From positions 1 through 34,375 of the forward strand of contig JACPPN010000264.1 in NCBI GenBank assembly GCA_016190995.1: a DNA stretch of 34,375 nt, read 5' to 3'. Below the pieces are notes generated by a model that searched no databases, had not been told where the DNA came from, and saw nothing but the letters and a program-made list of their open reading frames with translations. This DNA is from Acidobacteriota bacterium (GTDB taxonomy: Bacteria > Acidobacteriota > Vicinamibacteria > Vicinamibacterales > JACPPN01). This document shows, in pieces, positions 9,738 through 34,375 of this stretch; positions within the stretch are counted from its first letter, which is position 1, and the number at the start of each line of letters is the position of its first letter. The position numbers were made by a program, and so were the translations under genes.

Positions 9738-9740
9738 GAG

Positions 9741-9805: not shown

Positions 9806-9867
9806 GTAACGAAGCCTCACTTCAAGCCGACGAGTACGAACGACGCCTCGGCGTCGTCGAAGCTTCG

Positions 9868-9871
<4 letters not shown>
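9806..9871. repeat. Inverted-repeat element GTAACGAAGC...GCTTCGTTAC with inner hairpin
   Basis: A 66-bp element bounded by GTAACGAAGC (9806-9815) and its inverse GCTTCGTTAC (9862-9871). Inside is the perfect 18-bp palindrome ACGACGCCTCGGCGTCGT (9840-9857). The right arm supplies the TAA stop of the kinase gene, so the inner hairpin begins about 11 bases after that stop and may end or protect the kinase transcript, although no T-run follows. The arm sequence CGAAGCTTCGTTAC or its variant also occurs at 12566-12577 and 23896-23909, always between genes. Confidence 0.7.
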
Positions 9872-11535
<1,664 letters not shown>

Positions 11536-11779
11536 CAAGACGCCTGATGCGGTTCGGGAATCTGGAGTTTACCGCCCAAAGGTCGAGGCGTCAACGTTAT
11601 GACCGATCGAGGCTTGCGGCCAGCTGAGCCTTCTGGCCACGGTAGTGCCCGAGACCCGGAAGGGCTGAGCTCTCCGGAAGACGCGCGTTCTGGGCGGGGT
11701 GTGGCCTGCGGTCGGCGCAGGGGACAGGCGCGAGCCGAGGGCCGGGCCAGCAGCCCGACCCTCCGGGCAATCGACTCCC
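11536..11779. other. Intergenic space between kinase and DinB genes
   Basis: About 244 bp with no convincing gene; the short frames here lack motifs. It should hold the promoter of the kinase (minus strand), but no clear -35/-10 pair is visible. Near the end of the DinB gene an imperfect hairpin GAGGGCCGGG/CCCGACCCTC (11737-11746 and 11754-11763) begins 16 bases after the DinB stop. It could be a weak terminator but lacks a T-run. Confidence 0.4.
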
Positions 11780-13684: not shown

Positions 13685-16600
13685 TCATCGCAGCACCACC
13701 GTGGCGATCGAGCCAATCACCCAGGCGTCTCCCGCCTTTTTCATGACGAGGGTACGGACGGTCGAGCTGGATTGCCTCGCGCCAGACTTCGCCACCGTCG
13801 TCTGGTTGAATCGGCAGCTCACGCGCGCCGTGGTGTCGTCGACCGACAGCACCTTGATGTTGTCGATGGTGACGGTCAGGGCGCTCAGGCTCTTGTAGGT
13901 TTCGGCGAGGACGTCGACATCCACCGTCGGCCAGACCTGCCGAACCGCCGCGGGATTGAGGGTTGCCTGCGCGGCCGCATAGCGCTGCAGCGTGTCCGCG
14001 ATGGCCGCCTCGGGCGAGACGGCCGCCAGCGACGGTTTCGCTGGTGAGCCGGGCTTTGCCGCAATCTTCTCGTCCGGCGGCCGGCCAACCGAGGTCGGCG
14101 GCGAGCCGACCGTCGCCGGAGCCGATGCCGGCTTGGACGACGTTGGCGATGGCATCGCCTGTGATCCTGAGGGCTGCGTCACGGCTGGCCTGCCCCCGGA
14201 GGCCGCGCGGCCCTGCAACGCTGCTTGTTCGAAAAGGGTCGAAGCTCTCCAGTATTGGCGGATGGCCTGGTCGATTTTTCGATCGCGCGCCAGACGTGTG
14301 GCTCCCGACTCTGCCGAGACGGCCTGTTGATAGCTCGCCGATCCGCTCGCGCCTGCCGCAGTAGCGCCCTCACGCGCCTTGTCGGATTGCAGCCGCGCGT
14401 ATCCCAGGAGAGCTTCCAGGATGCGCGTCAGCTCCGGGTCATTGTTCCGGATCTGCAGGCCTGCTGACACTGACTGCAGGGCGGCACGATCTTCGCCGCG
14501 CGCGAGCTGCTGGCGGGCCGCGCTGCGGTAGGTTGCGAGCTGCTGTTCAATCTCGGCAGGCGACAACGTGGACGGGGCCAGTGTCATCGACGGCGCTGCG
14601 ATCGCGGCTGATGGCAACGCGGCGGGTGGTGTCGCCGCTGGTGGTGTGGCCGGCACACCCGTGACCTGCCCGGCGGGCGGGGCCGTTTCAGGCGATCGCA
14701 GCCTCGCGACCCATAATCCGATTCCCAGGACCAGGACCGCGGCAATAGAAACCAGGACGCGCCGCTCGCGGAGGGGGCGAGGAAGCCGAACCTGGAGCCG
14801 GGACGCCAGCACTTGGGGGGCCGAGGCGACCGAGATCCGAGCCGTCGCGGTCGAGTCCTGCGGTACGGCCGTCGCCGTGGTCTCCTCCAGCCGCGCGGCA
14901 GCGGGGGCGCTCAATCGTTCACCGTCGGCGCGGACCCCCTCGTGATCGAGGATGTCTATCGGCTCCGGGGGTGCGGAATCGACGGCGGTCGGGGCTGGAG
15001 CGAGCTCCTGCGCTTCCCTCGCCTCGCGCCGGCGTGTGGCCTCCGCTTCCTGAAGCGCGGCAAGACGGCGTTCGCACTGCTGAAATCGAGGCGAATCGGC
15101 ATGCGTCTCCCGCGTCTCCTGTAGCGCGCGCGCCGCCATATCGAGATCGCCGAGATCGAGCAGGTTCTCCACTCGCGTGATCAACGCGTCGACCAGCCGC
15201 TCATGCGCCTTGGCGGCGGCCTTCTGCTCCTTGCGCTTCTGCTCGGCGCGCTGACGAAACTCGTCGACCGCCGCAACGTGCGGATGCGCCCGGGCGGCTT
15301 CCTCGATTTTCAGTAGCGCGCCGTCGACGTCGCCCGCGGCGAGCAGCCGCTCGGCCTCGCCGGTGACGAGCCTCGCGGCTCGCTCGGCCGCCTTGTCCGC
15401 CCGCTGGTCCTCGCGGATGCGCGCCAGCAGATCAGAGGCGCGTGCGGAATCGGCATCTGCTGCGAGCGCCTCCCGCGCACATGTCAGCGCGTCGCTGAAG
15501 CGTCGCGTCCCCAACGCGCGCTCGGCAGCCTCGAGACGGGCGGCGACGTACTGCTCCCGCTCGCGCTGCACACGCTCCTGGTGATCGCGTGCCTCCTGCT
15601 CCCGTCGGCGACGCTCTTCTTCCTCCTGATCTCTGCGCCGCGCGTCCTCCTGCTCTCGTCGTCGTGCCTCTTCGGCCTCGCGTCGTTGACCCTCGTCTTC
15701 CGCCCGCTTGCGACGGGCTTCCTCTCGCTGACGCTGCTCTTCTTCCTTCTTCCGCCGGCGCTCTTCATCGCGCCGCTCCCCCTCTGCCGCTTCCTCGCGC
15801 TTGCGACGCGCCTCCTCCTCGCGACGGTGTCGTTGCTCGTCCTCGCGCTGGCGGCGGGCTTCTTCCTCCCGCTGACGCTGCCAGATGGCTTCAGCCTCGT
15901 GCTGGAGCTCGCCGAGCGCTCGTTCGACCTCGTCATGATGGGGCTCAAACGCCTGCAGTCGGGCCAGCGCCGCTTCGAGCTGTCCCGCTCGGAATTCCGC
16001 CCGCGCATCCTCGATCGCCTGACAGGCGCGCTCGTCCAGCTCGTCGCGGCGCCGGCAATCCTCGAGCGCGGCCCGGGCGCGCTGCCGGAGCTCGCGCGCC
16101 TCGATGTGGTCCGGATCGATAGCGAGGGCCTCGGTCGCGGCGTCGCGCGCCTCGTCGAGATGGCCGGCGTCGAACGCGGCCCGCGACCGCTCAAGCGAGC
16201 GTGCAATGGCGGCGGATCGTTCGCGCAATCGTTCCGCTTCGTACCTGGCTTGCGTGATGCGTCGCTTGAGCTGTAGGGCGTCCTCGAAAGCGGGAGCGAT
16301 CGCGAGCGCGCGCTCGACCAGCTCCTGAGCCGCCGTCCAGACGCCGCGTTCGACTGCCTCACGCGCCTCCGCCACCCATCCGGACGCTTGCTGCTGCTCG
16401 AACGCCTGCCGCGCCTCGTCGAGGAGCGCCAGGATCCGCCCGTCATCCGGATTGAGAACCGCGGCCTGCTCGCACGACGCCACCGCGGCCTCGTACCGGC
16501 CGGCACTCATGGCTTCGCGCGCGGCGGTCAGAAACGCTGCTATCTGCTCGGCGCGACGCTTTGCAATCGCGGCGCGATCCGTGCGGCGCGGCGTCATCGA

Positions 16601-17488
16601 GGGCGGGGGCGTGCTCGCCTGCAGGACCGTCGCCTGCTCGGGCAGGTCGAGGTCGGTCCGCGTTTCCTCAACCGGTGACAGGCGATGCCGAATCGCGGCA
16701 ATGTCCAGGCGCATCCGGCCGAGATCCTGATACCGATCGGCGGGATCTTTGGCGAGCGCGCGAAAGATCATCCGTTCCAGATCGGGATCGCGGTCGGCGA
16801 TGAACTTGCTGATCGGTTCCGGGTTCAGGGTCTGGATCTTGGGGATCAGGCCCTCCTCAATGCCTCCCGGAAACGCCTGCCGATAGGTCAAGAGCTCGTA
16901 GAGGACGGCTCCAACCGCGAAGATGTCGCTCCGGTGATCGATCCGCTGACCGGTAACTTGCTCCGGCGACATATAGTTGATCGTGCCAATCAGCATGCCA
17001 GCCAGCGTCATGCCCGAGCCGCCGATGCGTGCGATCCCGAAGTCGAGGATCTTCAGGACGCCGTCGGCGTCGACAATCAGATTCGCAGGCTTGATGTCCC
17101 GGTGAATGATGCCCGCATTGTGGGCGTAGGCGAGGCCGGCGCACAGTTCCTCCACTAGAGTCAGCTTGCGCACGATGGAGAGCGGCGCGCGGCGTCCGAT
17201 GAGATCGGCGAGCGTGTTGCCCGGAATGTACTCCATGGCAATGAAGGGCTGGCCGTCGTGCTCGCCGACGTCGAAGATGGTGACGATATTGACGTGCCGG
17301 AGGCGGCCGGCCGAGCGCGCCTCGCGCGCGAACCGCTCACGCACTTCGTCGCTGTTGTCCCGCAGGAGCTTGATGGCGACGAGACGCTCGATGGCCGGAT
17401 CGCGCGCGAGATAGAGGTACCCCATCCCGCCCTGGCCGAGGCGGTCAATGACCTGGTAGCGCCCGATGCTATGCGGATTGGCCGTCAC
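13685..17488 (-). CDS. Very large Ser/Thr kinase: kinase, TPRs, charged helix, TM, TPRs, NTF2-like end
   Basis: A 1267-residue protein. The kinase domain (about 11-270) has LGQGGMGYLY, ATP lysine K40, HRDIKPAN (129-136), DFG (149-151) and TINYMSPEQ. Degenerate TPRs occupy about 310-530. About 538-645 is almost only Glu, Arg, Lys and Gln in alternating short blocks, with few hydrophobic heptads, as in single alpha-helix domains. More TPRs lie at about 650-815. One transmembrane helix (about 910-929, LVSIAAVLVLGIGLWVA) leads to a periplasmic part with TPR-like helices (about 960-1090), a Pro/Ser linker and a C-terminal domain of about 115 residues resembling SnoaL/NTF2-like folds. Start GTG 17488 gives the same N-terminus as its paralogue. 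It is last in the minus-strand run, 165 bp after its paralogue, and may have its own promoter. EQATVLQA near residue 287 is a candidate phospho-site. Confidence 0.9.
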   Translation of the reverse strand: MTANPHSIGRYQVIDRLGQGGMGYLYLARDPAIERLVAIKLLRDNSDEVRERFAREARSAGRLRHVNIVTIFDVGEHDGQPFIAMEYIPGNTLADLIGRRAPLSIVRKLTLVEELCAGLAYAHNAGIIHRDIKPANLIVDADGVLKILDFGIARIGGSGMTLAGMLIGTINYMSPEQVTGQRIDHRSDIFAVGAVLYELLTYRQAFPGGIEEGLIPKIQTLNPEPISKFIADRDPDLERMIFRALAKDPADRYQDLGRMRLDIAAIRHRLSPVEETRTDLDLPEQATVLQASTPPPSMTPRRTDRAAIAKRRAEQIAAFLTAAREAMSAGRYEAAVASCEQAAVLNPDDGRILALLDEARQAFEQQQASGWVAEAREAVERGVWTAAQELVERALAIAPAFEDALQLKRRITQARYEAERLRERSAAIARSLERSRAAFDAGHLDEARDAATEALAIDPDHIEARELRQRARAALEDCRRRDELDERACQAIEDARAEFRAGQLEAALARLQAFEPHHDEVERALGELQHEAEAIWQRQREEEARRQREDEQRHRREEEARRKREEAAEGERRDEERRRKKEEEQRQREEARRKRAEDEGQRREAEEARRREQEDARRRDQEEEERRRREQEARDHQERVQREREQYVAARLEAAERALGTRRFSDALTCAREALAADADSARASDLLARIREDQRADKAAERAARLVTGEAERLLAAGDVDGALLKIEEAARAHPHVAAVDEFRQRAEQKRKEQKAAAKAHERLVDALITRVENLLDLGDLDMAARALQETRETHADSPRFQQCERRLAALQEAEATRRREAREAQELAPAPTAVDSAPPEPIDILDHEGVRADGERLSAPAAARLEETTATAVPQDSTATARISVASAPQVLASRLQVRLPRPLRERRVLVSIAAVLVLGIGLWVARLRSPETAPPAGQVTGVPATPPAATPPAALPSAAIAAPSMTLAPSTLSPAEIEQQLATYRSAARQQLARGEDRAALQSVSAGLQIRNNDPELTRILEALLGYARLQSDKAREGATAAGASGSASYQQAVSAESGATRLARDRKIDQAIRQYWRASTLFEQAALQGRAASGGRPAVTQPSGSQAMPSPTSSKPASAPATVGSPPTSVGRPPDEKIAAKPGSPAKPSLAAVSPEAAIADTLQRYAAAQATLNPAAVRQVWPTVDVDVLAETYKSLSALTVTIDNIKVLSVDDTTARVSCRFNQTTVAKSGARQSSSTVRTLVMKKAGDAWVIGSIATVVLR

Positions 17489-17653
17489 GTCGCGTTACCG
17501 TCGACCTGGCGCCGCCCGACCGCCGAACGCCCGAAGCTTGCGCTGGCTCGCCGCAGGCATGAACATGGGGTGGGCGCCCCGGGGGGGAGGAAAACGGCGC
17601 CCTGAGTGGGTGCGAGTGTACCTCGGTGGATCCGGAGGGTCAACCGGTCCGCG
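17489..17653. other. Intergenic gap between the two large kinases
   Basis: This 165-bp gap is by far the largest within the minus-strand run. It includes a C-rich block on the minus strand (GGGCGCCCCGGGGGGG on plus, near 17573-17588) that could form a structure. No clear promoter or terminator was recognised. It is the natural place for an internal promoter for the last kinase gene. Confidence 0.4.
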
Positions 17654-20600
17654 TCAGCGAATCAGCCAACGGCCCTCGACCTTCTGGAGCGCCAGCACCT
17701 GCGACACGGTCTGTGACGTCGTGCCCCCGCGTCGATTCTGCAGCATGTACCTGATCCGGCAGGACGCGGTGGCGCGGTCGCCGGTGATCGAGATCGTGAC
17801 GTTCTCAAACTGCAGGCGCAGGGCGATCAGCTCGGAGAAGTACGTGCTTCGCTCCTGTACCTGCGCCTCCGTCATCCACGGCCTGATCTTCTTCAGCGCC
17901 GTCACGCTGAGACGCTCGTGCGCCTCTTTATAGAGCTGCAGGGCATCGCGAACCCCCTGCTCGTCCGCCGCCGCCGACTGGGGCGTTGCGGGAGGCGCGG
18001 CCGCAGGCTGCGCGACCGGTGCGGTCTCACGACTCGGCGATGGCGCGGTCTCACGGCTCGGCGACGGCGCGGGCACTGTGGTCGACGCGGCGGGCGTTCC
18101 TTCTACGCTCGGCTTAGGCGGCGGCGGTTCGGGTGCGGCAGTAGGCTCCACGTTCGAAGGCGCTTGTTGCGTCGGGGTCGCACGGTTCGCCGACAACTGT
18201 TCACTGTTACGTCGGGCCTCGCCCGCCGCGACACCGAACAGCTCCGCCGCCGACCAGAATTGCTGCGCCGATTCCGCAAGTTTTCCTTCGCGCCGGAGCT
18301 GCTCCGCAAGCGCGCGGCGGCGCGCCGCATTCTCGAAACTGACCACGCCCAGACGCTCCGCTCCCGCCAGGTTGGCGTCCGATTGCGCTCGATCCGATCG
18401 TTGCCGCGCATCATCGGCGAGCCGCGTCATGAGCGCGCGCAACTGGACATCGGACGGGTCGAGGTGCAAACCGGCGATCACGGTCGTAAGCGCCTGCAGA
18501 TAGTTGGCCTTGGAGAATTGCTGGAGAGCGTCGGCGCGGATTTTCGCGAGTCGCGGGTCTTTGGGCGGCGGCGCATTCGCAACTTCTGGCGAGGACACCG
18601 GCTGTGACTGAAGAGACGGGGCCTGACTCTGAACGGCCGGCTCTGTCGGTGGCTGCGGCGGCGTTGCCGGCGCCGACGGTGGCGCCGCCTGCGGTGACGG
18701 TGGCACCGCCTGCGCCTTCTCCTCGGTCAGGGGCGCCTGCTGGTCGGGTGCGCTTCCGCCGAACAACCACATGCCTATCACGATCAGGAGCGCAAGCCCG
18801 AGAGCGCCCCATCGCCTCAAGTCGAACGATCGCCAGCGCCCGATTTCCGCCTCGAGGAACGAAGCGCCAGGTTCCGCTGCCTGCTCGACCAGGGGCCCGG
18901 GCCGTTCGGCGATCGAGGGCTGCACGCGCGCCTGAACAGCCGGCGCGCGCCCCACGTGGGACTCGACCGGCACCGGCGTGACTGCGCCCGAAGAGGCCCG
19001 CGCGAAAACGGTCTTGTCCTGCTCGGATGCTGGCGGCGCCCCTTCCCGGCCGAGTGGCATAACAGATGCCGGCGAAGGGGCGACCGGTTGCGCCGGTGCA
19101 GGCAGCTCCGCTTCAACCTTCGCGTTGGCGATGCGCTGCTCTGCCTCGCGCAATCGTCCGGCGGCTTCGAGATCGGCACGCGCTCGAATCAGCTCACGCT
19201 CCGCCGTGTCAGGGTCGCCCGCCGCCAGCCATCGGTCGATGCGTAGGATGACTTCCGCCGCGCGGGTCATGGCGGTGGCGAACGCCACGCCGGAAGCCGA
19301 TGCGGCCCGAACCTGCGACCCGGAACCGGGAGACGGCGGCGGCGCGGCCGGGCTGGGTGCCGGCGGGGCGAGCCCAGCCGGCGGAGGAGACTGAGCCGCT
19401 ACGGGAGGCGGAACAGAGGCGACGGGGTCGGCCGAACGGTCTGGCGGCGCCCCCGCAGAAGCGGGGGCCGAGCCGGGTACCAGCGGCGGCGGCTCCGAAA
19501 CGGCGGCCTCCGGCTGTCGCGGCGCGCCGGCCGGTCGCGCCACGACACCTCGTCCTGTCCGCGACTCCTTCTTCCGGCGCTCCGCTTCCTCGCGCTGCCG
19601 CGTGATTTCCGCCCGCAATTCGAGCGACCGCAAGTCGCCGGGGTCCTTCTCGAGAGCCGCCGTGACGCTGCGCATCGCCTCGGCAAACCGGTGGCGCGCC
19701 AAAGCCCGTTCCGCCTGCGCGACAGCTTTCGCCACCTGTCGAGCCACCTCGGCCCGTGCTTCGTCCATGGATGCTGCCGGAGCCTCCCGAACATCCGCAG
19801 GAGATTCTGTCGCTCGTTCTTCTTCAGGCGCGGCGGCCGGTTCGCTCGCCGACACCGCGGTCGCGATGCCGGATGGTTTCGGCGGTTCGATCGCGGCGGC
19901 GCCCTCGGCCGCCACAGCGGGCACGGCGGGTTCTCCCGCTTCTTCGGCCGGCGTAGAAGGAGCAGGAACAGCCGGCCCGGCCGCCTGTTGCGCTTCATGT
20001 CGGCGTTTTTCCCGCTCTTCCAGCCGTCTCCGCCAGATGGCTTCGGCTTCGTTCCGGAGCTCGACGAGCACCCGCCTTACTTCTTCGTTCGCCGGACTGA
20101 ACGCCTGCAGCATGGCGAGGGCCGACTCGTGCGCTCCCGAGGCGAACTCGCGCCGGGCCTCCGCGATCGCTTCAGCGGCGTGTCGATCGGCCTCGCGACG
20201 GCGCCGCTCTTCTTCAGCTGCCGCGGAGGCGCGCTGCTTCAGGTCGCGCGCGTCAGCACACTGCGGATCGATGGCGAGCGCATCGGCCGCCGCCTGCACC
20301 GCGGTCTCGAACGCGCCGACATCGAAGCTCGAGCGCGCGCGCTCGAGGGAGGCGGCGAGGGCCTGAGCGCGCTCCTGCCGGATACGCGCCTGCTCGGCAT
20401 CCACCACCACCGCCGTCAGGCCGGGGTCTTCCGGGTTGACCGCGCGCGCCCGCGCGATGGCGTCCAACGCGAGGTCGATTTCACCGCGGTCGAGCGCGGC
20501 GCGCGCCTCGGCGACCAGCGCCGCCAGCTGACGCGCCTCGCGTGCCGCGCGCGCGCTGTCGATCATGTCGATGACGCGCGATTCGTCCGGATCGATCAGC

Positions 20601-21631
20601 GACGCCCGGTCGCACGCGTCGATCGCGCCGTCGAAATCCTCGGCCTCGAACTTCGCGCGCGCCTCCCCGAGCAGCGTGTCGATTTGTTCGGCCCGCCGCT
20701 TCGCGATGAGCTCACGATCCACGGCGGCGCGACGCGTGCCACTGGAAGGCGCGGGCGTTTGCGGGGGTGGAACCGGGAGGAATGGCGTGACGGGCGCCGT
20801 CTCGTCCATGGCCGCCCCGCGGGCGAGCTGGCGCCGCACGAGCCCGATCTCGCCCCTCATCGCGCCCATGTCCTGGTACCGCATGCTCATCTCCTTCGCC
20901 AGCGCGCGGGAGACGATTGGATCGATCGGCGCGAGCTGCGGCGCGAGCAGCCGCAAGGGCGGCGGATCGTTCTGGGCGATCCGCTGCAGCACGCCGTCCT
21001 CGAGGCTGCCCGGGAACGCCTGGCGGTAGGTGAGGAGCTCGTACAAGACGGCGCCCACCGCGAAGACATCGCTCCGGGCGTCGGCGGGCATGCCGGCGGT
21101 CTGCTCGGGGGACATGTAGTTGACTGTGCCGACCAGCGTACCGATACGCGTCATGCTGGAGTTCACGACGCGGGCGATGCCGAAGTCGAGGATCTTGAGC
21201 ACCCCCTCCGCATCGACGATCAGGTTTGCCGGCTTCACGTCACGATGGACGATGCCGGCGCGGTGCGCGTAGGCGAGGCCCGCGCACAGCTCCTCCATCA
21301 TCTTCAGCTTGTCGTCGAGCGGAATCACCGCCCGGCGCTGAATGATCTGCCCGAGCGTCTCACCGGGGATGTACTCCATCGCGATGAAGGGAATCCCCTC
21401 GTGCTCGCCGACGTCGAAGATGGTGACGATGTTCGGATGGTGGAGGCGGCCGGCCGAGCGCGCTTCACGCGCGAAGCGTTCGCGGATGTCGCGGCTGTCG
21501 TCGCGCAGCACCTTGATCGCGACGAGTCGATCGATCGCGGGATCGCGGGCGAGAAACAGCGCACCCATTCCTCCTCGCCCGAGCCGCTCGAGCACCTGAT
21601 ACCGTCCGATGGCGGGAGGAATCGCGCTCAT
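17654..21631 (-). CDS. Very large Ser/Thr kinase paralogue: kinase, TPRs, Pro/Ala linkers, TM, TPRs, NTF2-like end
   Basis: A 1325-residue protein collinear with the kinase at 13685-17488. The kinase domain (about 11-270) has LGRGGMGALF, K40, HRDVKPAN, DFG and TVNYMSPEQ. TPRs at about 310-535 end in NEAEAIWRRR, matching HEAEAIWQRQ at the same position in the paralogue. Instead of the long charged helix there is a Pro/Ala/Glu-rich linker (about 545-620), then TPRs, another Pro-rich stretch, a further helical pair, a transmembrane helix (about 941-958) and periplasmic TPR-like helices. A Pro/Ser/Thr linker with a duplicated eight-residue unit and a C-terminal NTF2-like domain follow. DKTVFARA near residue 874 is a candidate phospho-site close to the membrane. 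It starts 18 bp after the PEGA/PDZ stop, so translation is probably coupled. Confidence 0.9.
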   Translation of the reverse strand: MSAIPPAIGRYQVLERLGRGGMGALFLARDPAIDRLVAIKVLRDDSRDIRERFAREARSAGRLHHPNIVTIFDVGEHEGIPFIAMEYIPGETLGQIIQRRAVIPLDDKLKMMEELCAGLAYAHRAGIVHRDVKPANLIVDAEGVLKILDFGIARVVNSSMTRIGTLVGTVNYMSPEQTAGMPADARSDVFAVGAVLYELLTYRQAFPGSLEDGVLQRIAQNDPPPLRLLAPQLAPIDPIVSRALAKEMSMRYQDMGAMRGEIGLVRRQLARGAAMDETAPVTPFLPVPPPQTPAPSSGTRRAAVDRELIAKRRAEQIDTLLGEARAKFEAEDFDGAIDACDRASLIDPDESRVIDMIDSARAAREARQLAALVAEARAALDRGEIDLALDAIARARAVNPEDPGLTAVVVDAEQARIRQERAQALAASLERARSSFDVGAFETAVQAAADALAIDPQCADARDLKQRASAAAEEERRRREADRHAAEAIAEARREFASGAHESALAMLQAFSPANEEVRRVLVELRNEAEAIWRRRLEEREKRRHEAQQAAGPAVPAPSTPAEEAGEPAVPAVAAEGAAAIEPPKPSGIATAVSASEPAAAPEEERATESPADVREAPAASMDEARAEVARQVAKAVAQAERALARHRFAEAMRSVTAALEKDPGDLRSLELRAEITRQREEAERRKKESRTGRGVVARPAGAPRQPEAAVSEPPPLVPGSAPASAGAPPDRSADPVASVPPPVAAQSPPPAGLAPPAPSPAAPPPSPGSGSQVRAASASGVAFATAMTRAAEVILRIDRWLAAGDPDTAERELIRARADLEAAGRLREAEQRIANAKVEAELPAPAQPVAPSPASVMPLGREGAPPASEQDKTVFARASSGAVTPVPVESHVGRAPAVQARVQPSIAERPGPLVEQAAEPGASFLEAEIGRWRSFDLRRWGALGLALLIVIGMWLFGGSAPDQQAPLTEEKAQAVPPSPQAAPPSAPATPPQPPTEPAVQSQAPSLQSQPVSSPEVANAPPPKDPRLAKIRADALQQFSKANYLQALTTVIAGLHLDPSDVQLRALMTRLADDARQRSDRAQSDANLAGAERLGVVSFENAARRRALAEQLRREGKLAESAQQFWSAAELFGVAAGEARRNSEQLSANRATPTQQAPSNVEPTAAPEPPPPKPSVEGTPAASTTVPAPSPSRETAPSPSRETAPVAQPAAAPPATPQSAAADEQGVRDALQLYKEAHERLSVTALKKIRPWMTEAQVQERSTYFSELIALRLQFENVTISITGDRATASCRIRYMLQNRRGGTTSQTVSQVLALQKVEGRWLIR
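18021..18068 (-). repeat. 24-bp tandem duplication inside kinase gene (PSPSRETA twice)
   Basis: Two 24-bp units, differing by two or three bases, at 18021-18044 and 18045-18068 encode PSPSRETA-PSPSRETA in the periplasmic linker before the C-terminal domain. It is probably a recent slippage event and the copy number may vary between strains. Confidence 0.75.
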
Positions 21632-21649
21632 ACCGGCATCAGTTCGAGC

Positions 21650-23890: not shown

Positions 23891-23895
23891 AGGCA

Positions 23896-23909
23896 GTAAC
23901 GAAGCTTCG
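23896..23909. repeat. Intergenic GTAACGAAGCTTCG palindrome
   Basis: GTAACGAAGCTTCG, with the perfect palindrome CGAAGCTTCG inside, fills the short gap between the propeller and PEGA/PDZ genes. It is the same sequence, inverted, as 9858-9871, which lies between kinase and propeller genes of the other module copy. It may be a small dispersed element or a regulatory or processing site. Confidence 0.65.
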
Positions 23910-23912
23910 CCT

Positions 23913-25430: not shown

Positions 25431-27310
25431 CGAATCGGGAGGCGAGTCGTGTCGCCGGGCTGGATGCTGACCTTGAACGGGCGACGGGTTCCGTTCGGGC
25501 AATCGAGATTCACGGCATAGCCTCGGGGCGCAAGGCGTTGCGCCTCGAAAGGTGCGTAGCCGAGGTCGCGGGTCTCCAGCGAAACCGCGCAGTTCTCGAC
25601 CGCGCTTGCCACCGTGATGAGCAACGTGCCGAGCTCGGGCGCCCGCAGCTCGACGTTTCTGCCCGGGGGCACGTCGACATTCATTGCGTAGTCCAGGAAG
25701 TACTCCGATGCCCGCAGGCGCAACGTGTGACGCCCGGCGAGCGTCAGGCGGTGGCTCTCGGCTGCCTCGCCGAGCACGCGCCGCCCTTCCACCACCTCGA
25801 ACGGATACGCCCCCGTGATGCTCACGGTGCCGGGCTGTTGCGACGCGGCTTCGAGCTGGAACGTCGCCGTTCCTGCCCGCGCCTGCTCTTCGGTGACGCG
25901 CCCCTCGTACGTTTGATAGCCACGCTTCACGAGCCGCAAGCGCCACGGCGGCGATCCCGGCAACGGAATCGTGGCGGGCGTCACGGCATCGAGATCACGT
26001 CCCTCGAGGTTGATGTTCGCGCCCGAGGGCTCCGTGACGATGGCGAGCTTGAGCTCGGTCGTCGTCGGCGCGGGTGCGGGTTTCGGCGGCTGTACGACGA
26101 TAATCGGCGCAGGCGTTGTGGTCCCGGCCGAAACCGGCTGCGTGGCAGGTTGCGACGAGAGCCACATCCTGGCTGAAAAGAGCAGGATGATGACGAGCGA
26201 GACCCCGCCCGCCGCTCCTGCCAGCACCCCCCATCCGCCCGAGCGGTCGAAGACAGAGGGCAAGCCGCTGCGCCGCTTCGGCGGCGCCCACAGCTCGGAC
26301 GTCGACTCGCGGTACGGTAGCGGCGGCTCGGTGGCGGTCCGGGCAGTTCCGGAAGCAACGGGGACGGCGCTCCACGACCCCGAGGGTGATGGACCAGCAG
26401 GGGTTCGGTACCGCGAGCTCGGGGGCGGTGCCGCGTCGCTGGGCGCGTAAACAGTCTCGGGCAGCACGACCGCGGGCTGCTCGATGGGCAGCGACTGCCG
26501 GATCGCCTGCAGATCGCCCGCGAGGTCGCCGGCGCGCTGGTACCGGTTGTCGGCATTCTTCTGGAGCGCCTTCCCGACCGTGTTGATCAACGCAGGCGGC
26601 AGATGGAGCGGCAGATTCTGGAGCGGCGGCGGTTCGTCCCTGATGATCTTCAGAAGAAGTGCCGTCGGTGAATCTGCCTCGAACGGTTTATGTCCGGCCA
26701 GGAGCTCGTAGAGCACGACGCCGGCGGAGAACACGTCGGCGCGCCCGTCGATGATCCGCCCCTCCACCTGTTCGGGCGCCATGTAGGCCGCGCTCCCGAG
26801 CACGTCGCCGGCATTGGTGAGCGCGGTGCTCGCCATCTTCGCGATGCCGAAGTCGAGGAGCTTCACCGTGCCGTCTTCGAGCAGCCAGATGTTCGGCGGC
26901 TTGACGTCGCGATGGACGACGCCCTGCTCGTGGGCGAAGTGGAGGCCCGTGCAGAGCTGCACCATGATGTCGAGCTTCGAGTCGAGCGGGAGGGACGGCA
27001 CCTTCTGCAGCCGGCCCGTGAGGTTGGTGCCGCGCAGGAACTCCATCACGATGTACGGCACGCCTTCTTCCTCGGCGAACTCGAAAATCGTGACGATGTT
27101 GCGGTGCTGGAGCTTCGCGGCGGCGCGCGCCTCGCGGAAGAATCGCGGGCGGGCGGACTCGTCGGCCGTGAAATCGGTCGACATCAGCTTGATCGCCACC
27201 TCGCGATCGAGCACCGGATCGAGCGCGCGATAGAGCACGCCCATCCCACCTCGTCCGACGCGCTCGAGCACTTCGTACCGGCCAATCTTGCGAACCACAT
27301 CCGCCATCAT
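25427..27310 (-). CDS. Membrane Ser/Thr protein kinase with periplasmic PEGA modules (module copy 2)
   Basis: About 627 residues. The kinase domain spans about 10-275: VGRGGMGVLY, ATP lysine in AIK (about 41), HRDVKPPN (a proline replaces the usual alanine), DFG, and an activation loop TALTNAGDVLGSAAYMAPEQ. A disordered Pro/Ser/Thr linker (about 280-355) includes LPETVYAP, a candidate phospho-site. A transmembrane helix (about 360-382) is followed by a PEGA module (VTEPSGANINLEGRDLDAVTPATIPL) and more beta-rich sequence to the end, containing two cysteines (VENCAVSL and NLDCPNG) that could form a disulphide. ATG 27310 has GGAG 8 bases upstream; GTG 27316, overlapping the previous stop, is possible. 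It is co-translated with the propeller gene that follows. Confidence 0.92.
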   Translation of the reverse strand: MMADVVRKIGRYEVLERVGRGGMGVLYRALDPVLDREVAIKLMSTDFTADESARPRFFREARAAAKLQHRNIVTIFEFAEEEGVPYIVMEFLRGTNLTGRLQKVPSLPLDSKLDIMVQLCTGLHFAHEQGVVHRDVKPPNIWLLEDGTVKLLDFGIAKMASTALTNAGDVLGSAAYMAPEQVEGRIIDGRADVFSAGVVLYELLAGHKPFEADSPTALLLKIIRDEPPPLQNLPLHLPPALINTVGKALQKNADNRYQRAGDLAGDLQAIRQSLPIEQPAVVLPETVYAPSDAAPPPSSRYRTPAGPSPSGSWSAVPVASGTARTATEPPLPYRESTSELWAPPKRRSGLPSVFDRSGGWGVLAGAAGGVSLVIILLFSARMWLSSQPATQPVSAGTTTPAPIIVVQPPKPAPAPTTTELKLAIVTEPSGANINLEGRDLDAVTPATIPLPGSPPWRLRLVKRGYQTYEGRVTEEQARAGTATFQLEAASQQPGTVSITGAYPFEVVEGRRVLGEAAESHRLTLAGRHTLRLRASEYFLDYAMNVDVPPGRNVELRAPELGTLLITVASAVENCAVSLETRDLGYAPFEAQRLAPRGYAVNLDCPNGTRRPFKVSIQPGDTTRLPIR

Positions 27311-27312
27311 CG

Positions 27313-27868
27313 TCACTCCGTGCGCGACACGATGGTGAACGACGCCGCCACGTGCGCGAATACCGGCTCGAACTTGGTGAACTGCGCGACGGCGGAGCTG
27401 CAGATCAGGCGATACAGGTCCGTGCCGACCGGGAAGGAGTACTGACGAACGCGCTCGGCGCCCTTGATGCCGGGCCGGCCGAATTCGACCAGGATGAGCC
27501 GACGGGGTCCCACGTCGAGGAGCTTCGCCGTGACATTGGTGGCGGCGACCTGACGTTCGCGAACGAGATCGGCCTCCGTCTGGGCGAAGACGTCGTCGAT
27601 GTCGGCGGCCGTGAGCGCGATGTTGAGCGTCGCGTGCTCGACGACGATGGCCGCCTCACCCTTCTTCTGCGCCAGGGTTACGAGAACGAACCCGCCGCCC
27701 GGGACGGCCTGCCAGTCCTTTTTCGGGTACTCGAGGTTGAACCGTCCGCTTGGTCCCTGGAGCGGCTGCACGCCGAGCTTGGCGTTCCGTCCGAAGATGT
27801 TCGCCGGCTGCGCGGTCACGACGAGCGACGCGAGCGCGGCGAACGCCGGCACGAGAGACCAGATCCGT

Positions 27869-27876
<8 letters not shown>
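27313..27876 (-). CDS. Small exported protein of unknown function
   Basis: A 187-residue protein starting MRKRIWSLVPAFAALASLVVTAQP, a classical signal peptide. The mature part (GRFNLEYPKKDWQAVPGGGFVLVTLAQKKGEAAIVVEH) resembles in outline PsbP/DcrB/DUF1795-like alpha/beta domains, in which a strand FNLEYPKDW is common. This is a pattern impression only. No cysteines other than one near the end (LICSSAV) and no lipobox are seen. ATG 27876 overlaps the ATPase stop by 8 bp. Its own stop overlaps the next possible start (GTGA), so it is tightly built into the operon between the ATPase and the kinase. Confidence 0.7.
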
Positions 27877-29715
<1,839 letters not shown>

Positions 29716-29719
<4 letters not shown>

Positions 29720-31266
29720 CGGGGGCTCGCTCGAAGGGCTGAGAGGCGGTCCTGTGCCGGTTTCCGGTTCGGGTTGTTGTCACTCAGGAACTTGACCGCG
29801 CGCTCGTACAGGGCAATGGCCTCGGGGGTCCGGCCGAGCGCGTCGTATTGCTTCGCGCGCCGGTAGGCTTCGTCGCCTTCCTTGTTCATCTTGTCGCGGA
29901 CGCGACGCGTCGCTTCGTCGACGCCTCCAATCGACGCATCGATGCGCCGCGCCCGGGCATACTCGTCGAGCGCTGCGGTCAGGTCGCCTTCATTCTCGAG
30001 CTTCGTGGCCCCGTCAAATGCCTGCTGCGCCGACTGCCGGAGCGTGTTTCGTACCTGCGCGAGGAGCGCGGCGGCGTCGCGATACCGCGGCTCCTCACGA
30101 ACGATGGCTTCGAACTCGCCCGCCGCCCCCACCAGCTCTCCCCGGCTCAGATTCGCTTTCCCCTGGTCGTAGCGCGCCTGCATCTGGGCCATGCGTGCGC
30201 GCCACGAGACCGGCTTCTCGCCCGGCTGCAGCGTCACCCCTCCATCCTCTGGTTTCGGTGGCGCGGCACCGCGCGGCGCCGTGGCTGGCGCGGCCTTCGG
30301 CGGCGGCGTCGGTTTGGCGGACGCCCCGCTGGTGTCGGTCGAGCTCGCGGGTGGTGTCGCGGCCGGCGGGGTCGAGGCACCCGTGCTCCCCGGCGACGTG
30401 GCGGACTCCGCGGGCGCGATTGTCTCCTGCTCGGCCTGGTGCTGCTTCGCGCGCGCCAGGTCGTCCGCCTTGACCTTGAGCTCGTTGGCTTCCGCGTGCG
30501 TCCGGTCGATGAGCAGCACCGCGTCGAACTCCTGCCGCGCCGCGTCGTAGTCCCCGCGGTCGATCAGGGCCCTCCCATCCGCGATGTGCCTCGCGATTAC
30601 CTCCTCGTTTGGAGGCGCCGGCGGGGCCGGTTCCTGAGGGGTCGTGACGGTGGTCGTTGCCTGCGTGGCATCCTCCGGCGCCGGCGTGAGCATCACTTTG
30701 AGGCCGACGAGCACGATCATGAATACCGCGAAGACGCCGAAGACAAGCGGCTTCGGTTGACGGGCCAGCCACCCGACCGGGCCGCCAGCCGCCTGGGCGG
30801 CCGCCGCCTGTGACTTCGCCGGTCTGCGAGCGCTGCGAGCGGTGGCAGGCGTCGGCAACGGCGGCCGCGGCGCCACCAGCATCGTCTCCCTGCCCACGGA
30901 CTGCGTGGATTCGCGTGCAGCGCCGACGATCGTTTCGGGCATCGCGGCGCTGCCGACTGCTGCAATGGCCGGCTGCGCCTTCTCGAGCACCAACCGGTAC
31001 GGCCCCACCATTACCGCGAGGCCCGGTTCGAGCGCGGCACGGGCGACCCGCTGACCGCCCATCCAGATTCCGTTCTGGCTGTTCAGGTCGAGCAGCACGT
31101 ACTGGCCGCCCTCGTACCGCAGTTCAGCATGAATGCGCGACACACCCTTGGTGGGATCCTCGAGAATGATGTCGTTTTGATCGCCGCGGCCGATGCGGAG
31201 GTCGCGGTCGGCGAGATCGATTTGTTTGTACGGCGTCTCGCCGCGGAAGATGAGCAGCTTGGCCAC
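29716..31266 (-). CDS. FHA-TM-TPR membrane protein
   Basis: A 516-residue protein. The N-terminal FHA domain (about 1-97) has all hallmark residues: IGRGDQNDIIL, SRIHAEL and LNSQNGIW. A disordered linker holds two Thr motifs, PETIVGA (T112) and RETMLVAP (T128). A transmembrane helix lies at about 172-193. An external part has TPR-like helices at about 222-275 and 360-516, separated by a Pro/Ala/Ser linker. FHA domains bind phosphothreonine peptides, so it should read the activity of the kinases in this run. The start is taken as GTG 31266 (VAKLLIFRG), which has GAGGGA upstream and fits the FHA fold; the longer frame to 31329 runs into the preceding gene. Confidence 0.87.
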
Positions 31267-31273
31267 TGGAATT

Positions 31274-31279
31274 TCCCTC
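31274..31279 (-). promoter_or_regulatory. Ribosome-binding site GAGGGA for the FHA-TM-TPR gene
   Basis: On the minus strand GAGGGA lies 7 bases before GTG 31266. It supports the shorter start over the in-frame extension to 31329. Confidence 0.6.
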
Positions 31280-31294
31280 GCTGTTACGCGCGCG

Positions 31295-32203
31295 TCAGCG
31301 CCCCGAACGCCGCCGCGCTTCCTCAACACCCGTTGTCGCCTCGGCGTTGCGGGGATCGCCGGGATACGTCAGGAGCAGCACTTTTTCCCACGCGAGCGCG
31401 CCATCGTCGAATCGGAGCTGCGCCATGGCACGGCGGGCTTCCGCCAGCTCGTCGGCAATGGATCGTTCGAGCAGCGCTTGTGTCTCCGCCAGGCGCGCCC
31501 GCGCGATGTCGTTGCGCGGGGCGCGCTGGACGATCGCGGCGAACAACTGCACCGCCTCGCGATAGCGGCCCGCCTGCTGGTGCATCACGCCCTCGTCGTG
31601 AAGCGCCTCTTCTTCGCGCACGCCCGCCTGTGTCGCGCGCGCGGCGACCTCGGCGATGAGCTCGGTATCCACAATCGTGACCGGCTTCGTCGGGCCGACG
31701 GGCGCGGGCGCCGCCGCGGGGCCCGTCCGGACCTCCGTTCCCGGAGTCGACGAGGAGGGCGCGAGCATCATGAAGAGCACGAGCATCACCAACAGGGCGC
31801 CGGCCCCGACCATTGCCAGCCGGAGCTGCTTGGACTTGCCCGGCGCCGCCCCCGCCGCTTCGGCCGCGCGGTCGACGAACACCAGCTGTTGATCGCCGAC
31901 TTCGATGACGTCACCCGGCTTGAGCGCGTGGTAGACCGAGATCGGCGCGCCGTTGACTCGCGTGCCGTTCGCGCTCTTCAGATCCTCGACGACGAACTGT
32001 CCGCCCGTGTACTGCAGGATGGCGTGGTTTTTGGAGACGAACGCCGAATCTATGCTGATCGTGTTCGTCGGCTCACGGCCGATCGTGATGGGCCGCTCCG
32101 GCCAGATCGTGTACTCCACGGGCGTTCCGCCCGCGCGCTGCCACACCAGAACGGGACGTTGAACGTCCGAGTCTTTCGTTCCAATCAACGAATCGCGCCT
32201 CAT
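31295..32203 (-). CDS. Short FHA-TM-TPR membrane protein
   Basis: A 302-residue protein with an FHA domain at about 17-110 (IGREPTNTISI, SKNHAILQY, KSANGTRVNG), a transmembrane helix at about 128-147 (MVGAGALLVMLVLFMMLAP) and an external helical region (about 180-300) with TPR-like repeats (HDEGVMHQQAGRYREAVQLFAAIVQRAP). It is a shorter relative in design of the protein at 29716-31266. ATG 32203 overlaps the preceding stop (ATGA). The same frame is open well upstream, but that part is a shadow of the preceding gene. The role is inferred as a phosphothreonine reader anchored in the inner membrane with a periplasmic protein-binding arm. Confidence 0.86.
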   Translation of the reverse strand: MRRDSLIGTKDSDVQRPVLVWQRAGGTPVEYTIWPERPITIGREPTNTISIDSAFVSKNHAILQYTGGQFVVEDLKSANGTRVNGAPISVYHALKPGDVIEVGDQQLVFVDRAAEAAGAAPGKSKQLRLAMVGAGALLVMLVLFMMLAPSSSTPGTEVRTGPAAAPAPVGPTKPVTIVDTELIAEVAARATQAGVREEEALHDEGVMHQQAGRYREAVQLFAAIVQRAPRNDIARARLAETQALLERSIADELAEARRAMAQLRFDDGALAWEKVLLLTYPGDPRNAEATTGVEEARRRSGR

Positions 32204-33966
32204 GCGTGCCCCCTGCTTCCCGTTGGTTTGAACGCCACGTGCACCGGCTGGTCCTTGCCCGCGCGCGTGACCGTGATCTCGAGCTCGTACGGCCGTCCTT
32301 CCGGCTTGATGACCACGCGATCGGTGCCGCCGGCCGCCACGGTGCTCAGGCACGTCATCAGGCCAGCCGCGATCCCCTGATCCGGCAGCGCGTCCATCAG
32401 GTGCTGGCCGATGATGGCCTCGGGCTTGACGCCAAGCAGCTCCGAGCACCCCGGCGTGGCTTCGGTGATCCTGAACTTCTCGTTCGCGACCAGGCGCCCC
32501 TCCATCAGTGGCGCCGCCGCGGGCGGGGGGGCCCTGCGGGCGGTCGTGGCCGGCATCGGCGCCGCGTAGGAACGCGGCGCCGCCGGTGCGCGCGCGGCGA
32601 CCGGCTCCGGCGCAGCCTGCCGGCTGAGCGAGACGCCCGCCGCCTTCAACCGGTCGACGAGATAGCTCACCGAGTCGGCGATGTCCTTCGATGGCTGGGA
32701 ACCCAGAGGATCCGCCACCTCGCTGATTTGCCCCGACATGGCGAGCTCGATGTCTTCGTTCAGCGCCTTGAGCCCGTTCATCGTTGCGCGCCGGATCGCA
32801 GTCGCCACAACGAAGCCGGCCGCAAGCGCGAGAATCAGGGTCGGGAAGAGCACCATGCCGGTTCCCCCCGCGTCGGGAGGCACGGACGGCCTGAACGTAA
32901 TCCAGGCAACCGCGCTGGTGCCCTGCCTGGTCCGCACCGGCGCAACCGCCTCGATGACCTCGCCGTTCCACGCCGAGTGCGGCGAGCGTACGTCGCGCGG
33001 CGCGAGCCCGACGGCAGGAATGGTGGAGAACGATTCGGTCGCGCGCGCGCCTGGGGACTGCACGCGGCCGTCCCGCGTGAGCACGAGCGCGCTGATGACG
33101 CCGGCCTGCTCGAGCACACCGGTGGCGGCGTCCGCGATGCCCGAATTGGTCTCGATGGCGGCCCCCGCATCGGCGGCGAGCCATCGGACGAGCGCCAGCG
33201 CGCGCGCGTCTCCCGTGGCGGCCAGCAGGTTGGTGCGCGAGATGGTGAGGGGCACGGCCGCGATGAAGAACGCCACGACCGCGAGACCCATGACCAGGAC
33301 GAGCACGCGTCCGTTCCAGGATCCGCTGGGTGCCTTCTTCCGGCGCGCAGCCGCGCCCGGCGCAGGCGCGGGGGGCGCAATCGTCGGAATCGGCGCGGTC
33401 CTGGACGGGCGCGGCGGTTCGATCGGAACGCTCGGGGCCCCCCGCACGGCGCCCCGTGAGGGCGTCAAGATCGTCGCATCGCGGGCGATCTCCGGCGCGG
33501 AATCCACCATCGCGCCCCGATAGGCCGCGGCTGCCGGGCTCGCGTACGAAGGCGCGGCGGCGGGCGGAACCTGCGGTGCCATCGGCTGGGCATAGGGCAC
33601 GGCTCCGGACGCCGGCGGGGCGACGAGGACCGTGCGATCGCCCGACATCGTATCGCTCGCCGGCGGCGCGGCGTTCGGCTGCGGCTCCTCGACGAACTGG
33701 ATGTGAATACCGGCGACTTCGATGACGTCGCCCGGCAGCAGCGTGGCCTGCGTCGTCTGGACGCCGTTGACGCGGATGCCGTTGCGGCTGCCGAGGTCGC
33801 GGACGGTCACGGCGCTCGCGGAGGCGCGGAACTCGGCATGCTGGCGCGACAGGAGCGGGTCGTTGTCGCTGATGTCGCAGCTGGGATCCCGCCCGACGGT
33901 CATGGTTCCGGCGAGCAGGAGGTCACGTTCTCCACGGGAATCGCGGACGACAAGTTTGCGGCTCAC
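32200..33966 (-). CDS. FHA - TM - sensor - TM - HAMP-like - PAS membrane protein
   Basis: A 588-residue protein of unusual layout. The FHA domain (about 1-93) has VGRDPSCDI, SRQHAEF and GSRNGIRVNG. A long Pro/Ala linker (about 96-215) contains DRTVLVAP (T112) and DATILTP (T165). TM1 (about 220-240) leads to an extracytoplasmic sensor of about 130 residues resembling a single Cache-like domain (ALVLTRDGRVQSPG). TM2 (about 370-391) is followed by a HAMP-like linker (about 392-445) and a PAS-like domain (about 488-575; FRITEATPGCSELLGVKPEAIIGQHLMDALP). No kinase, cyclase or receiver domain follows, so signalling must pass through FHA or PAS contacts, most simply to the Ser/Thr kinases encoded downstream. 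The start overlaps the DUF192 stop (ATGA). Confidence 0.84.
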   Translation of the reverse strand: MSRKLVVRDSRGERDLLLAGTMTVGRDPSCDISDNDPLLSRQHAEFRASASAVTVRDLGSRNGIRVNGVQTTQATLLPGDVIEVAGIHIQFVEEPQPNAAPPASDTMSGDRTVLVAPPASGAVPYAQPMAPQVPPAAAPSYASPAAAAYRGAMVDSAPEIARDATILTPSRGAVRGAPSVPIEPPRPSRTAPIPTIAPPAPAPGAAARRKKAPSGSWNGRVLVLVMGLAVVAFFIAAVPLTISRTNLLAATGDARALALVRWLAADAGAAIETNSGIADAATGVLEQAGVISALVLTRDGRVQSPGARATESFSTIPAVGLAPRDVRSPHSAWNGEVIEAVAPVRTRQGTSAVAWITFRPSVPPDAGGTGMVLFPTLILALAAGFVVATAIRRATMNGLKALNEDIELAMSGQISEVADPLGSQPSKDIADSVSYLVDRLKAAGVSLSRQAAPEPVAARAPAAPRSYAAPMPATTARRAPPPAAAPLMEGRLVANEKFRITEATPGCSELLGVKPEAIIGQHLMDALPDQGIAAGLMTCLSTVAAGGTDRVVIKPEGRPYELEITVTRAGKDQPVHVAFKPTGSRGHA

Positions 33967-34337
33967 GCTGGGTCGATCCTTATCCGCTGCCCCGCACGAA
34001 CGCCGGCACGTGTGGCCGCGCCCGCAGGCAGCTCAATGGTGGTCCGGGCACGCCATCCGCCCCACGCGACACCGAAGGGTCGAAGCGTGTCGACAACCCG
34101 CAGGACGGTGCCGTGACGATCGAGGAAGATGACGTCAATCGCAAAACGCATGAACCATGTGTGCACCATCGAGCACGGCCGCAGCACCAGTCCGTCGCCT
34201 TCGTCGAGCGACCGGCGGGCGAGCAGGCCGATCATGCGCGAGAACGGCGTCGCGGCCACCGTCGCAAGTGTGAACGGCGCCGCCGGCTCGATCACGAGCT
34301 TCGCGCGGGGCGCGCGACCCTCACCGCGAGCGCGCAA
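33963..34337 (-). CDS. DUF192-family protein
   Basis: A small protein (124 residues if started at TTG 34337) with the DUF192 pattern: SRMIGLLARRSLDEGDGLVL, MVHTWFMRFAIDVIFLDRHG, VLRVVDTLRPF and the ending TIELPAGAATRAGVRAGQRI. The family forms a small beta barrel often found as an exported or lipoprotein domain; its biochemical role is not established, and no signal peptide is visible here. The start is uncertain: TTG 34337 overlaps the upstream gene by 17 bp, and GTG 34295 would give 110 residues. The stop overlaps the start of the FHA-PAS gene by 4 bp, so it belongs to the same run. Confidence 0.8.
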   Translation of the reverse strand: MRARGEGRAPRAKLVIEPAAPFTLATVAATPFSRMIGLLARRSLDEGDGLVLRPCSMVHTWFMRFAIDVIFLDRHGTVLRVVDTLRPFGVAWGGWRARTTIELPAGAATRAGVRAGQRIRIDPA

Positions 34338-34375
34338 GGAACTGGAGCGCCACCGGCGCGATGATCACGATCAAC
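34321..34375 (-). CDS. 3' end of an unidentified membrane protein gene (partial)
   Basis: On the minus strand the window edge reads LIVIIAPVALQFLARSR and then TGA at 34323-34321. A hydrophobic stretch followed by a basic tail suggests the final transmembrane helix of an integral membrane protein. It lies just before DUF192 and upstream of a GspE/PilB-like ATPase, so a platform protein of the GspF/TadC kind is one guess. Seventeen residues are too few to decide. Confidence 0.5.
   Translation of the reverse strand, partial: LIVIIAPVALQFLARSR

What the first reader, a model, noticed from the sequence alone, without database searches (positions are those of the whole stretch)
13685..34375. A roughly 20-kb kinase-FHA-secretion ATPase operon
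At least twelve minus-strand genes follow each other, most with ATGA-type overlaps and only one gap over 30 bp (17489-17653). It combines three kinases, three membrane FHA proteins, a GspE/PilB ATPase, a propeller, a PEGA-PDZ scaffold and DUF192. This mix implies that a pilus or secretion machine is assembled or gated by Ser/Thr phosphorylation, somewhat as PpkA-Fha control type VI secretion, but with different parts.
Basis: inference. Interest (0 to 1): 0.8.

Follow-up and report, generated by a model that had tools for sequence, protein, structure and literature searches.

The report
Kinase-controlled two-motor Tad pilus locus
The gene run is the downstream half of a Tad (tight-adherence) pilus locus in an Acidobacteria genome; it carries three phosphothreonine-reading proteins, dedicated Ser/Thr kinases and an unexpected second assembly motor, which suggests that phosphorylation decides when the pilus is built or pulled.

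Summary
The window is a whole MAG contig. Its 34059-34375 end overlaps contig C240 (98.7% over 317 bp), which carries tadC, an Flp-like pilin, tadB, a TadZ::TadA fusion and a short secretin directly upstream. The order Tad-(DUF192)-FHA-FHA-FHA-PilB-type ATPase recurs in related loci with enough flank and, more diverged, in other Acidobacteriota families. That ATPase forms its own supported clade and is a second motor beside TadA. The kinase part is a separable PP2C/kinase/FHA cassette that also occurs without Tad. Tad-locus kinases form orthologous clades, and PP2C phosphatases, 2-4 per genome, sit at the Tad locus in 7 of 10 genomes. Phospho-control of this pilus is well supported by linkage, but untested. 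The one-transcript claim is weaker: STK1 lies behind its own gap, and STK2/STK1 are placed differently elsewhere. Verdict: a new variant of the Tad pilus; the second motor is the most surprising part.

The parts
34321..34375 (-). 3' end of tadC (LIVIIAPVALQFLARSR*); rest of tadC, Flp-like ORF, tadB, tadZ::tadA and short secretin on contig C240 (locus L052)
   Evidence: 317-bp overlap, 98.7%
33963..34337 (-). DUF192 protein (PF02643), conserved companion of these Tad loci
   Evidence: 2.4e-19
32200..33966 (-). FHA1: FHA - TM - extracytoplasmic sensor-like domain - TM - PAS
   Evidence: FHA domain closest to GarA/OdhI
31295..32203 (-). FHA2: FHA - TM - TPR
29716..31266 (-). FHA3: FHA - TM - TPR (GTG start 31266 preferred; open frame to 31329)
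27869..29719 (-). PilB/GspE-type hexameric motor ATPase (T2SSE + degenerate MshEN); second motor of the Tad locus
27313..27876 (-). orf202: predicted exported protein of unknown fold, conserved in these loci (ATG 27876; open frame to 27921)
25427..27316 (-). STK3: Ser/Thr kinase - TM - periplasmic PEGA (cassette kinase B)
23913..25430 (-). exported TPR + NHL propeller protein of the kinase cassette
21650..23890 (-). exported TPR-PEGA-PDZ protein of the kinase cassette
17654..21631 (-). STK2: kinase - TPR - TM - DUF4440-like C-terminus (kinase clade L)
13685..17488 (-). STK1: kinase - TPR - TM - C-terminus similar to that of STK2 (kinase clade L); behind a 165-bp gap

Best explanation
The run is the downstream half of a Tad (type IVc) pilus locus with phosphothreonine control and a second motor. 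The Tad core (pilins, CpaB, short secretin, TadZ::TadA, TadB, TadC) is followed by three inner-membrane FHA proteins and a PilB-type ATPase. Next to it lies a signalling cassette: membrane kinase with periplasmic PEGA, exported TPR/propeller and TPR-PEGA-PDZ proteins and, in most relatives, a PP2C phosphatase and a second kinase. Proposed working: (1) the exported TPR/PEGA/PDZ proteins and the sensor domain of FHA1 report an envelope or surface-contact state; (2) the kinases phosphorylate threonines on Tad or FHA partners; (3) the FHA2/FHA3 heads bind these sites and dock the PilB-type motor, in addition to TadA, on the TadB/TadC platform; (4) PP2C resets it. Shown: the genes, their order, conservation across the order and more distantly across the phylum, conserved pThr-binding and catalytic motifs, and non-random linkage of STK and PP2C. 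Inferred: steps 1-4, and which direction the second motor drives.
For: Tad genes adjoin: contig overlap 98.7%/317 bp; TadZ::TadA (CbiA/AAA_31 + T2SSE), TadB, TadC, Flp-like ORF, pil_N secretin; CpaB, TadE/G-like and Flp-like genes in relatives. Gene order conserved in G006, G023, G004, G053, G015, G046, G253. In the phylum sample the same 7 of 396 genomes carry both the ATPase ortholog and the TadZ::TadA ortholog at 61% identity or more. More diverged TadZA-B-C-FHA-FHA-(FHA)-ATPase loci in G079, G152, G064. The ATPase clade is supported (100/98) apart from PilB with all motor motifs. FHA residues G-R, S-x-x-H and NG kept in most orthologs and kinase K/HRD/DFG intact. STK within the locus region in 9/10 genomes (1.7 expected, P about 7e-7; per family 7/8, P about 2e-5); PP2C in 7/10 (0.23 expected, P about 3e-10). 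Tad-locus kinases fall in orthologous clades. The genome's other, canonical Tad system (C91/C54) shows no FHA or GspE gene next to its held genes.
Against: No expression or biochemical data. The kinase cassette occurs without Tad in at least five genomes (G021, G017, G025, G056, G041) and its PEGA-PDZ gene in 11 of 51 genomes lacking the ATPase, so it may serve something else and be co-located. G253 has the full Tad-FHA-ATPase-PP2C locus but no STK on that contig. STK2/STK1 are not in the same position elsewhere. In this genome the PP2C-kinase pair is on an unjoined contig (C324). G004 FHA3 has lost the FHA serine.
Confidence: 0.68

Rival explanations
1. Two neighbouring but functionally separate units: a Tad-FHA-ATPase pilus locus (27313-34375 and upstream), and an independent envelope-stress or surface-sensing kinase cassette (21650-27316, perhaps with STK2/STK1) that regulates other targets.
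For: The cassette is complete and Tad-free in G021, G017, G025, G056, G041. PEGA-PDZ is in 11/51 genomes without the ATPase. A diverged copy of the triplet lies in this same window at 6157-11568.
Against: STK and PP2C linkage to Tad well above chance. FHA and orf202 genes are shared between cassette and Tad locus (L101). 4- to 8-bp overlaps between ATPase, orf202, kinase and propeller genes.
Confidence: 0.22
2. The PilB-type ATPase is a stray T4aP/T2SS motor that merely lies near the Tad genes and acts with PilC or GspF elsewhere.
For: Sequence type is PilB/GspE, not CpaF; the genome has its own PilB-PilT-PilC (C280) and a GspE-F pair (C49).
Against: Found at the same position after TadC-FHA in every related locus with enough flank, including other families of the phylum; separate supported clade; co-occurs with the TadZ::TadA type.
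Confidence: 0.07
3. A Kil-like (Myxococcus) contact-dependent predation machine: the pilus is used to kill other cells, with FHA/kinase signalling triggering assembly on contact.
For: Kil is a Tad derivative with several FHA proteins and an unusually short secretin (PMC8460266); here too there are several FHA proteins and a short, diverged secretin.
Against: No FHA-TadA fusion (TadZ fusion instead), an extra motor, and the paper reports Kil only from Myxococcales, Bdellovibrionales and Bradymonadales. No effector genes identified.
Confidence: 0.1

Closest known systems
Tad / type IVc pilus (Caulobacter Cpa, Aggregatibacter Tad)
   Same: TadZ, TadA, separate single-domain TadB and TadC, CpaB/RcpC, pil_N secretin, TadE/G-like and Flp-like genes.
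   Different: TadZ fused to TadA; three FHA proteins, a second PilB-type ATPase, kinases and PP2C added. Tad is described as a single-motor system driven by bifunctional CpaF (PMC12019362).
Myxococcus Kil system (PMC8460266, PMC12075869)
   Same: Tad derivative with several FHA proteins; short secretin.
   Different: KilF carries the FHA domain itself; single ATPase; the word kinase does not occur in the main text of either paper; two unlinked clusters.
Class III CpaF (FHA-CpaF; PMC12019362)
   Same: Links pThr reading to the Tad motor. A TadA protein with an extra N-terminal part and separate FHA genes occurs in Acidobacteriota family f30 (G072, G175).
   Different: In the window type, FHA is on separate membrane proteins and TadA is fused to TadZ.
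T6SS PpkA-PppA-Fha threonine phosphorylation pathway (PMC3953482)
   Same: Locus-linked Ser/Thr kinase, PP2C phosphatase and FHA protein controlling an envelope machine.
   Different: The machine is a Tad pilus; no T6SS sheath gene in four genomes tested; three membrane FHA proteins and extra exported PEGA/PDZ/propeller proteins.
T7SSc-j variants with kinase, PPM phosphatase and FHA (PMC11217815)
   Same: Same regulatory triad attached to a different secretion machine.
   Different: Gram-positive FtsK-type ATPase systems, unrelated machine.

Membership tests
Tad (type IVc) pilus | TadA/CpaF ATPase with separate one-domain TadB and TadC platform proteins | tested here: met
   C240: T2SSE half of the 697-aa protein, two single-T2SSF proteins
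Tad (type IVc) pilus | TadZ (MinD/ParA-like) | tested here: met
   Fused to the N-terminus of TadA (CbiA 3.1e-9, AAA_31 6.3e-9)
Tad (type IVc) pilus | CpaB/RcpC | tested here: met
   In relatives (G006: RcpC 3e-24); not located in this fragmented genome
Tad (type IVc) pilus | Secretin | tested here: inconclusive
   389-aa protein with pil_N domain (4.3e-15); secretin domain PF00263 not matched; C-terminus diverged but aligns with a relative's secretin-like end
Tad (type IVc) pilus | Flp pilin and TadE/G pseudopilins | tested here: inconclusive
   Flp-like GQTPTEYLM ORF between tadB and tadC in C240; in G006 Tad PF13400 1e-5, TadE 0.002 and Flp 0.0025, the last two below cut-off
Tad (type IVc) pilus | Prepilin peptidase in the genome | tested here: met
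   Two Peptidase_A24 genes, C293 and C365; assignment to this system not tested
Tad (type IVc) pilus | Single motor ATPase (usual for Tad, not a membership criterion) | tested here: not met
   A second, PilB-type ATPase is part of the conserved locus
Kil system | FHA domain fused to the motor ATPase (KilF) | tested here: not met
   No FHA match in TadZ::TadA
Kil system | Several separate FHA proteins | tested here: met
   Three FHA proteins
T6SS PpkA/PppA/Fha pathway | Linked STK + PP2C + FHA | tested here: met
   STK and FHA in the window; PP2C linked in 7 of 10 genomes, in this genome on contig C324
T6SS PpkA/PppA/Fha pathway | T6SS apparatus (VipB sheath) | tested here: not met
   PF05943 absent in G000, G006, G015, G053
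T2SS or T4aP | GspE/PilB next to a two-domain GspF/PilC platform | tested here: not met
   Two-domain T2SSF proteins only on C280 and C49
Phospho-regulated pilus | Kinase-dependent phosphorylation of a pilus component read by FHA | not testable with these tools
   Motifs only

The most novel reading that the evidence does not exclude
A two-motor Tad pilus: besides the archaeal-derived TadA, a bacterial PilB-type hexamer, recruited through FHA proteins when they bind kinase-made phosphothreonines, works on the same TadB/TadC platform, so extension and retraction are split between two motors and switched by a kinase/phosphatase pair.
Probability: 0.33. Interest if true: 0.82.

Novelty: new variant of a known kind. 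Interest (0 to 1): 0.62.

Why it matters
Tad pili are held to be single-motor systems whose one ATPase both extends and retracts the filament. A conserved Tad type with a second, PilB-lineage motor would make the question of how direction is chosen testable by gene removal. The locus also supplies the parts missing from the Kil literature, where many FHA proteins were noted and a signalling cascade proposed: here cognate kinases and a PP2C are linked to an FHA-rich Tad system. It would extend PpkA/PppA/Fha-type control from T6SS and T7SS to a pilus.

Tried and rejected
orf202: AlphaFold model from two sequences, mean pLDDT 39, useless, not searched. FHA1 model: only the FHA and PAS regions are confident; the fold search supports the FHA domain alone. 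The genome-contig scan with the ATPase gave only two named loci (UBA2161 and RIFCSPLOWO2_12_FULL_66_21). A T6SS was considered because of the PpkA-Fha likeness and rejected. A T2SS or T4aP locus was rejected: no PilC/GspF in the locus. The 1283-1385-aa plus-strand ORF over 19691-23848 was picked by my codon caller, but it overlaps domain-bearing minus-strand genes and is taken as a high-GC shadow frame. First ATPase sequences were partly read on the wrong strand and were replaced. Two family-scan calls failed on wrong coordinates. Papers on Tad with kinase, second ATPase or Acidobacteria: none found describing this arrangement in the held library.
Full report
What was checked. The window is the whole contig C192 of a 3.82-Mb, 400-contig MAG. 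Named relatives of the same order are Acidobacteria MAGs (UBA2161 and RIFCSPLOWO2_12_FULL_66_21, matching the G023 and G053 contigs by length); that the order is Vicinamibacterales is my inference. The minus-strand genes are real by Pfam content and by orthology. There are 11 complete genes. Junctions are tight: five 4-bp overlaps, one 8-bp overlap, gaps of 28, about 22 and 18 bp, and one of 165 bp. In the 165-bp gap there is a weak sigma-70-like match, not above chance, and, by eye, a GC-rich inverted repeat.

What the machine is. The first bases upstream of DUF192 encode LIVIIAPVALQFLARSR*, the end of a TadC. Contig C240 of the same genome reads TadC-DUF192 at its left end and overlaps window 34059-34375 at 98.7% over 317 bp. 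C240 carries, in transcription order, a 389-aa pil_N secretin-like protein, a 697-aa TadZ::TadA fusion, TadB, an Flp-like ORF and TadC. The locus is therefore a Tad pilus. The genome has a second, canonical Tad system on C91/C54 with separate TadZ and TadA; the genes held downstream of its TadC are an AAA-like and a methyltransferase-like protein, not FHA or GspE.

Conservation. In relatives with enough flank (G006, G023, G004, G053, G015, G046, G253) the order is TadE/G-like genes - CpaB - secretin - TadZ::TadA - TadB - (Flp-like) - TadC - (DUF192) - FHA1 - FHA2 - FHA3 - ATPase - (PP2C) - orf202, with DUF192, PP2C and orf202 shifting place or missing and the upstream genes cut off in G053 by its contig end. 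In a 396-genome phylum sample the ATPase (E <= 1e-150) is in 7 genomes, and the TadZ::TadA ortholog at 61% identity or more is in the same 7. More diverged versions, TadZA-B-C-(DUF192)-FHA-FHA-(FHA)-ATPase, are in G079, G152 and, cut by the contig end, G064; G124 ends in its third FHA gene. Family f30 (G072, G175) has a TadA with an extra N-terminal part, DUF192 and two FHA genes but no such ATPase beside them. So the FHA genes and the second ATPase belong to this Tad type.

The second motor. The ATPase aligns best with PilB, PilF and GspE structures and only weakly with CpaF. It keeps Walker A GPTGSGKS, the GEIRD Walker B region, the HTND box and the paired CxxC motifs, and it forms a clade with 100/98 support apart from the PilB of the same order. 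No two-domain PilC/GspF is in the locus; those lie on C280 and C49. Published Tad work describes a single bifunctional motor (PMC12019362). Two motors in one conserved Tad locus is the main novelty. What it drives is unknown: dedicated extension is my first guess because its kin are extension motors, but that is inference.

The phosphothreonine part. The FHA proteins are membrane proteins: FHA1 has two TM segments around a sensor-like domain plus PAS, FHA2 and FHA3 have one TM and TPRs. Their FHA domains keep the G-R, S-x-x-H and NG residues in most orthologs; G004 FHA3 has lost the serine, and my motif search missed G023 FHA1, which the alignment shows to keep GR, S and H. FHA1's FHA domain is closest in fold to GarA and OdhI. 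All window kinases keep the catalytic K, HRD and DFG. STKs lie in or next to the locus in 9 of 10 genomes (G253 is the exception) against 1.7 expected for a 40-kb region. PP2C genes, only 2-4 per genome, do so in 7 of 10 against 0.23 expected. The test assumes random placement; one genome per family still gives about 2e-5 and 2e-7. For G023 the kinase and PP2C are 15-20 kb from the FHA genes. Kinase-domain phylogeny puts the Tad-locus kinases in orthologous clades apart from most genomic STKs: clade B with STK3, clade A with the PP2C-linked kinases, clade L with STK1 and STK2, a G004 Tad-locus kinase and the G015/G046 kinases upstream of Tad; a further clade-L copy of this genome, C79, has no Tad gene recognised on its contig. 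Six kinase loci lacked my motif pattern and were left out of that tree.

The cassette is separable. In G021, G017, G025, G056 and G041 a run with PP2C (not seen in G025), kinase A, an FHA protein in most, kinase B, TPR-propeller and PEGA-PDZ stands without Tad; in G021 it also holds an FHA3-like protein and orf202. PEGA-PDZ is in 6 of 9 genomes with the ATPase and 11 of 51 without. A diverged copy of the triplet lies in this window at 6157-11568. In this genome PP2C and kinase A sit at the end of contig C324, beside a 729-aa protein that is 48% identical to the gene between PP2C and the pilin genes in G006; it is likely that C324 flanks the same locus, but the contigs are not joined.

Reading. 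The best account is a Tad pilus variant into which a kinase/phosphatase/FHA cassette has been joined, with FHA proteins as pThr readers between kinases and motor. It works like PpkA/PppA/Fha control of T6SS (PMC3953482) but is not a T6SS. It resembles Kil (PMC8460266) in its FHA richness and short secretin, but fails Kil's FHA-fused single ATPase. Shown: gene content, order, linkage, motifs. Inferred: phosphorylation of Tad parts, FHA docking of the motor, sensing by the exported proteins. The single-operon claim is likely for DUF192 to PEGA-PDZ, uncertain for STK2 and unlikely for STK1.

Noticed in passing
window 6157-11568 (-): A second kinase - TPR protein - PEGA-PDZ triplet, same gene order, 41% (kinase domain), 24% and 25% identical to the Tad-linked one, without FHA or Tad genes beside it in the window.
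   Followed up: partly
L052:1142-1822 (-) (contig C240, between tadB and tadC): Flp-like pilin ORF (GQTPTEYLMLGGLG...) with an unusually long, proline-rich, cysteine-containing C-terminus, placed between tadB and tadC; G004, G053, G006, G023 and G253 have a pilin-like ORF at the same place.
   Followed up: partly
L052:4770-5939 (-): Secretin-like protein of the Tad locus is short (389 aa) with only the pil_N domain recognised; a very diverged secretin domain.
   Followed up: partly
L138:8118-13168 (+) (contig C324): 729-aa membrane protein gene, no Pfam match, 48% identical to a Tad-flanking gene in G006, followed by PP2C and a clade-A kinase at the contig end; probably the other flank of this locus.
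   Followed up: partly
L101:192-12124 (+): Stand-alone cassette PP2C - kinase - FHA - FHA3-like - orf202 - kinase/PEGA - TPR-propeller - PEGA-PDZ just before what look like ribosomal and elongation-factor genes; G053's Tad locus and G009's cassette end beside the same kind of genes.
   Followed up: no
L061, G023:C40:33903-36533 (-): One protein with two kinase domains, one grouping with clade A and one with clade B: an apparent fusion of the two cassette kinases.
   Followed up: no
window 5291-5593 (+): ParE-like toxin gene (1.3e-4, just below cut-off) with a small ORF of no Pfam match upstream at 4879-5124.
   Followed up: no
window 2738-2849: Tandem 28-29-bp GC-rich repeat (GTAGCGTCCGGCTTCAGCCGGACTTCACG), intergenic.
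   Followed up: no
window 19691-23848 (+): 1385-codon open frame antisense to STK2 and PEGA-PDZ; taken as a high-GC shadow frame, not a gene.
   Followed up: partly
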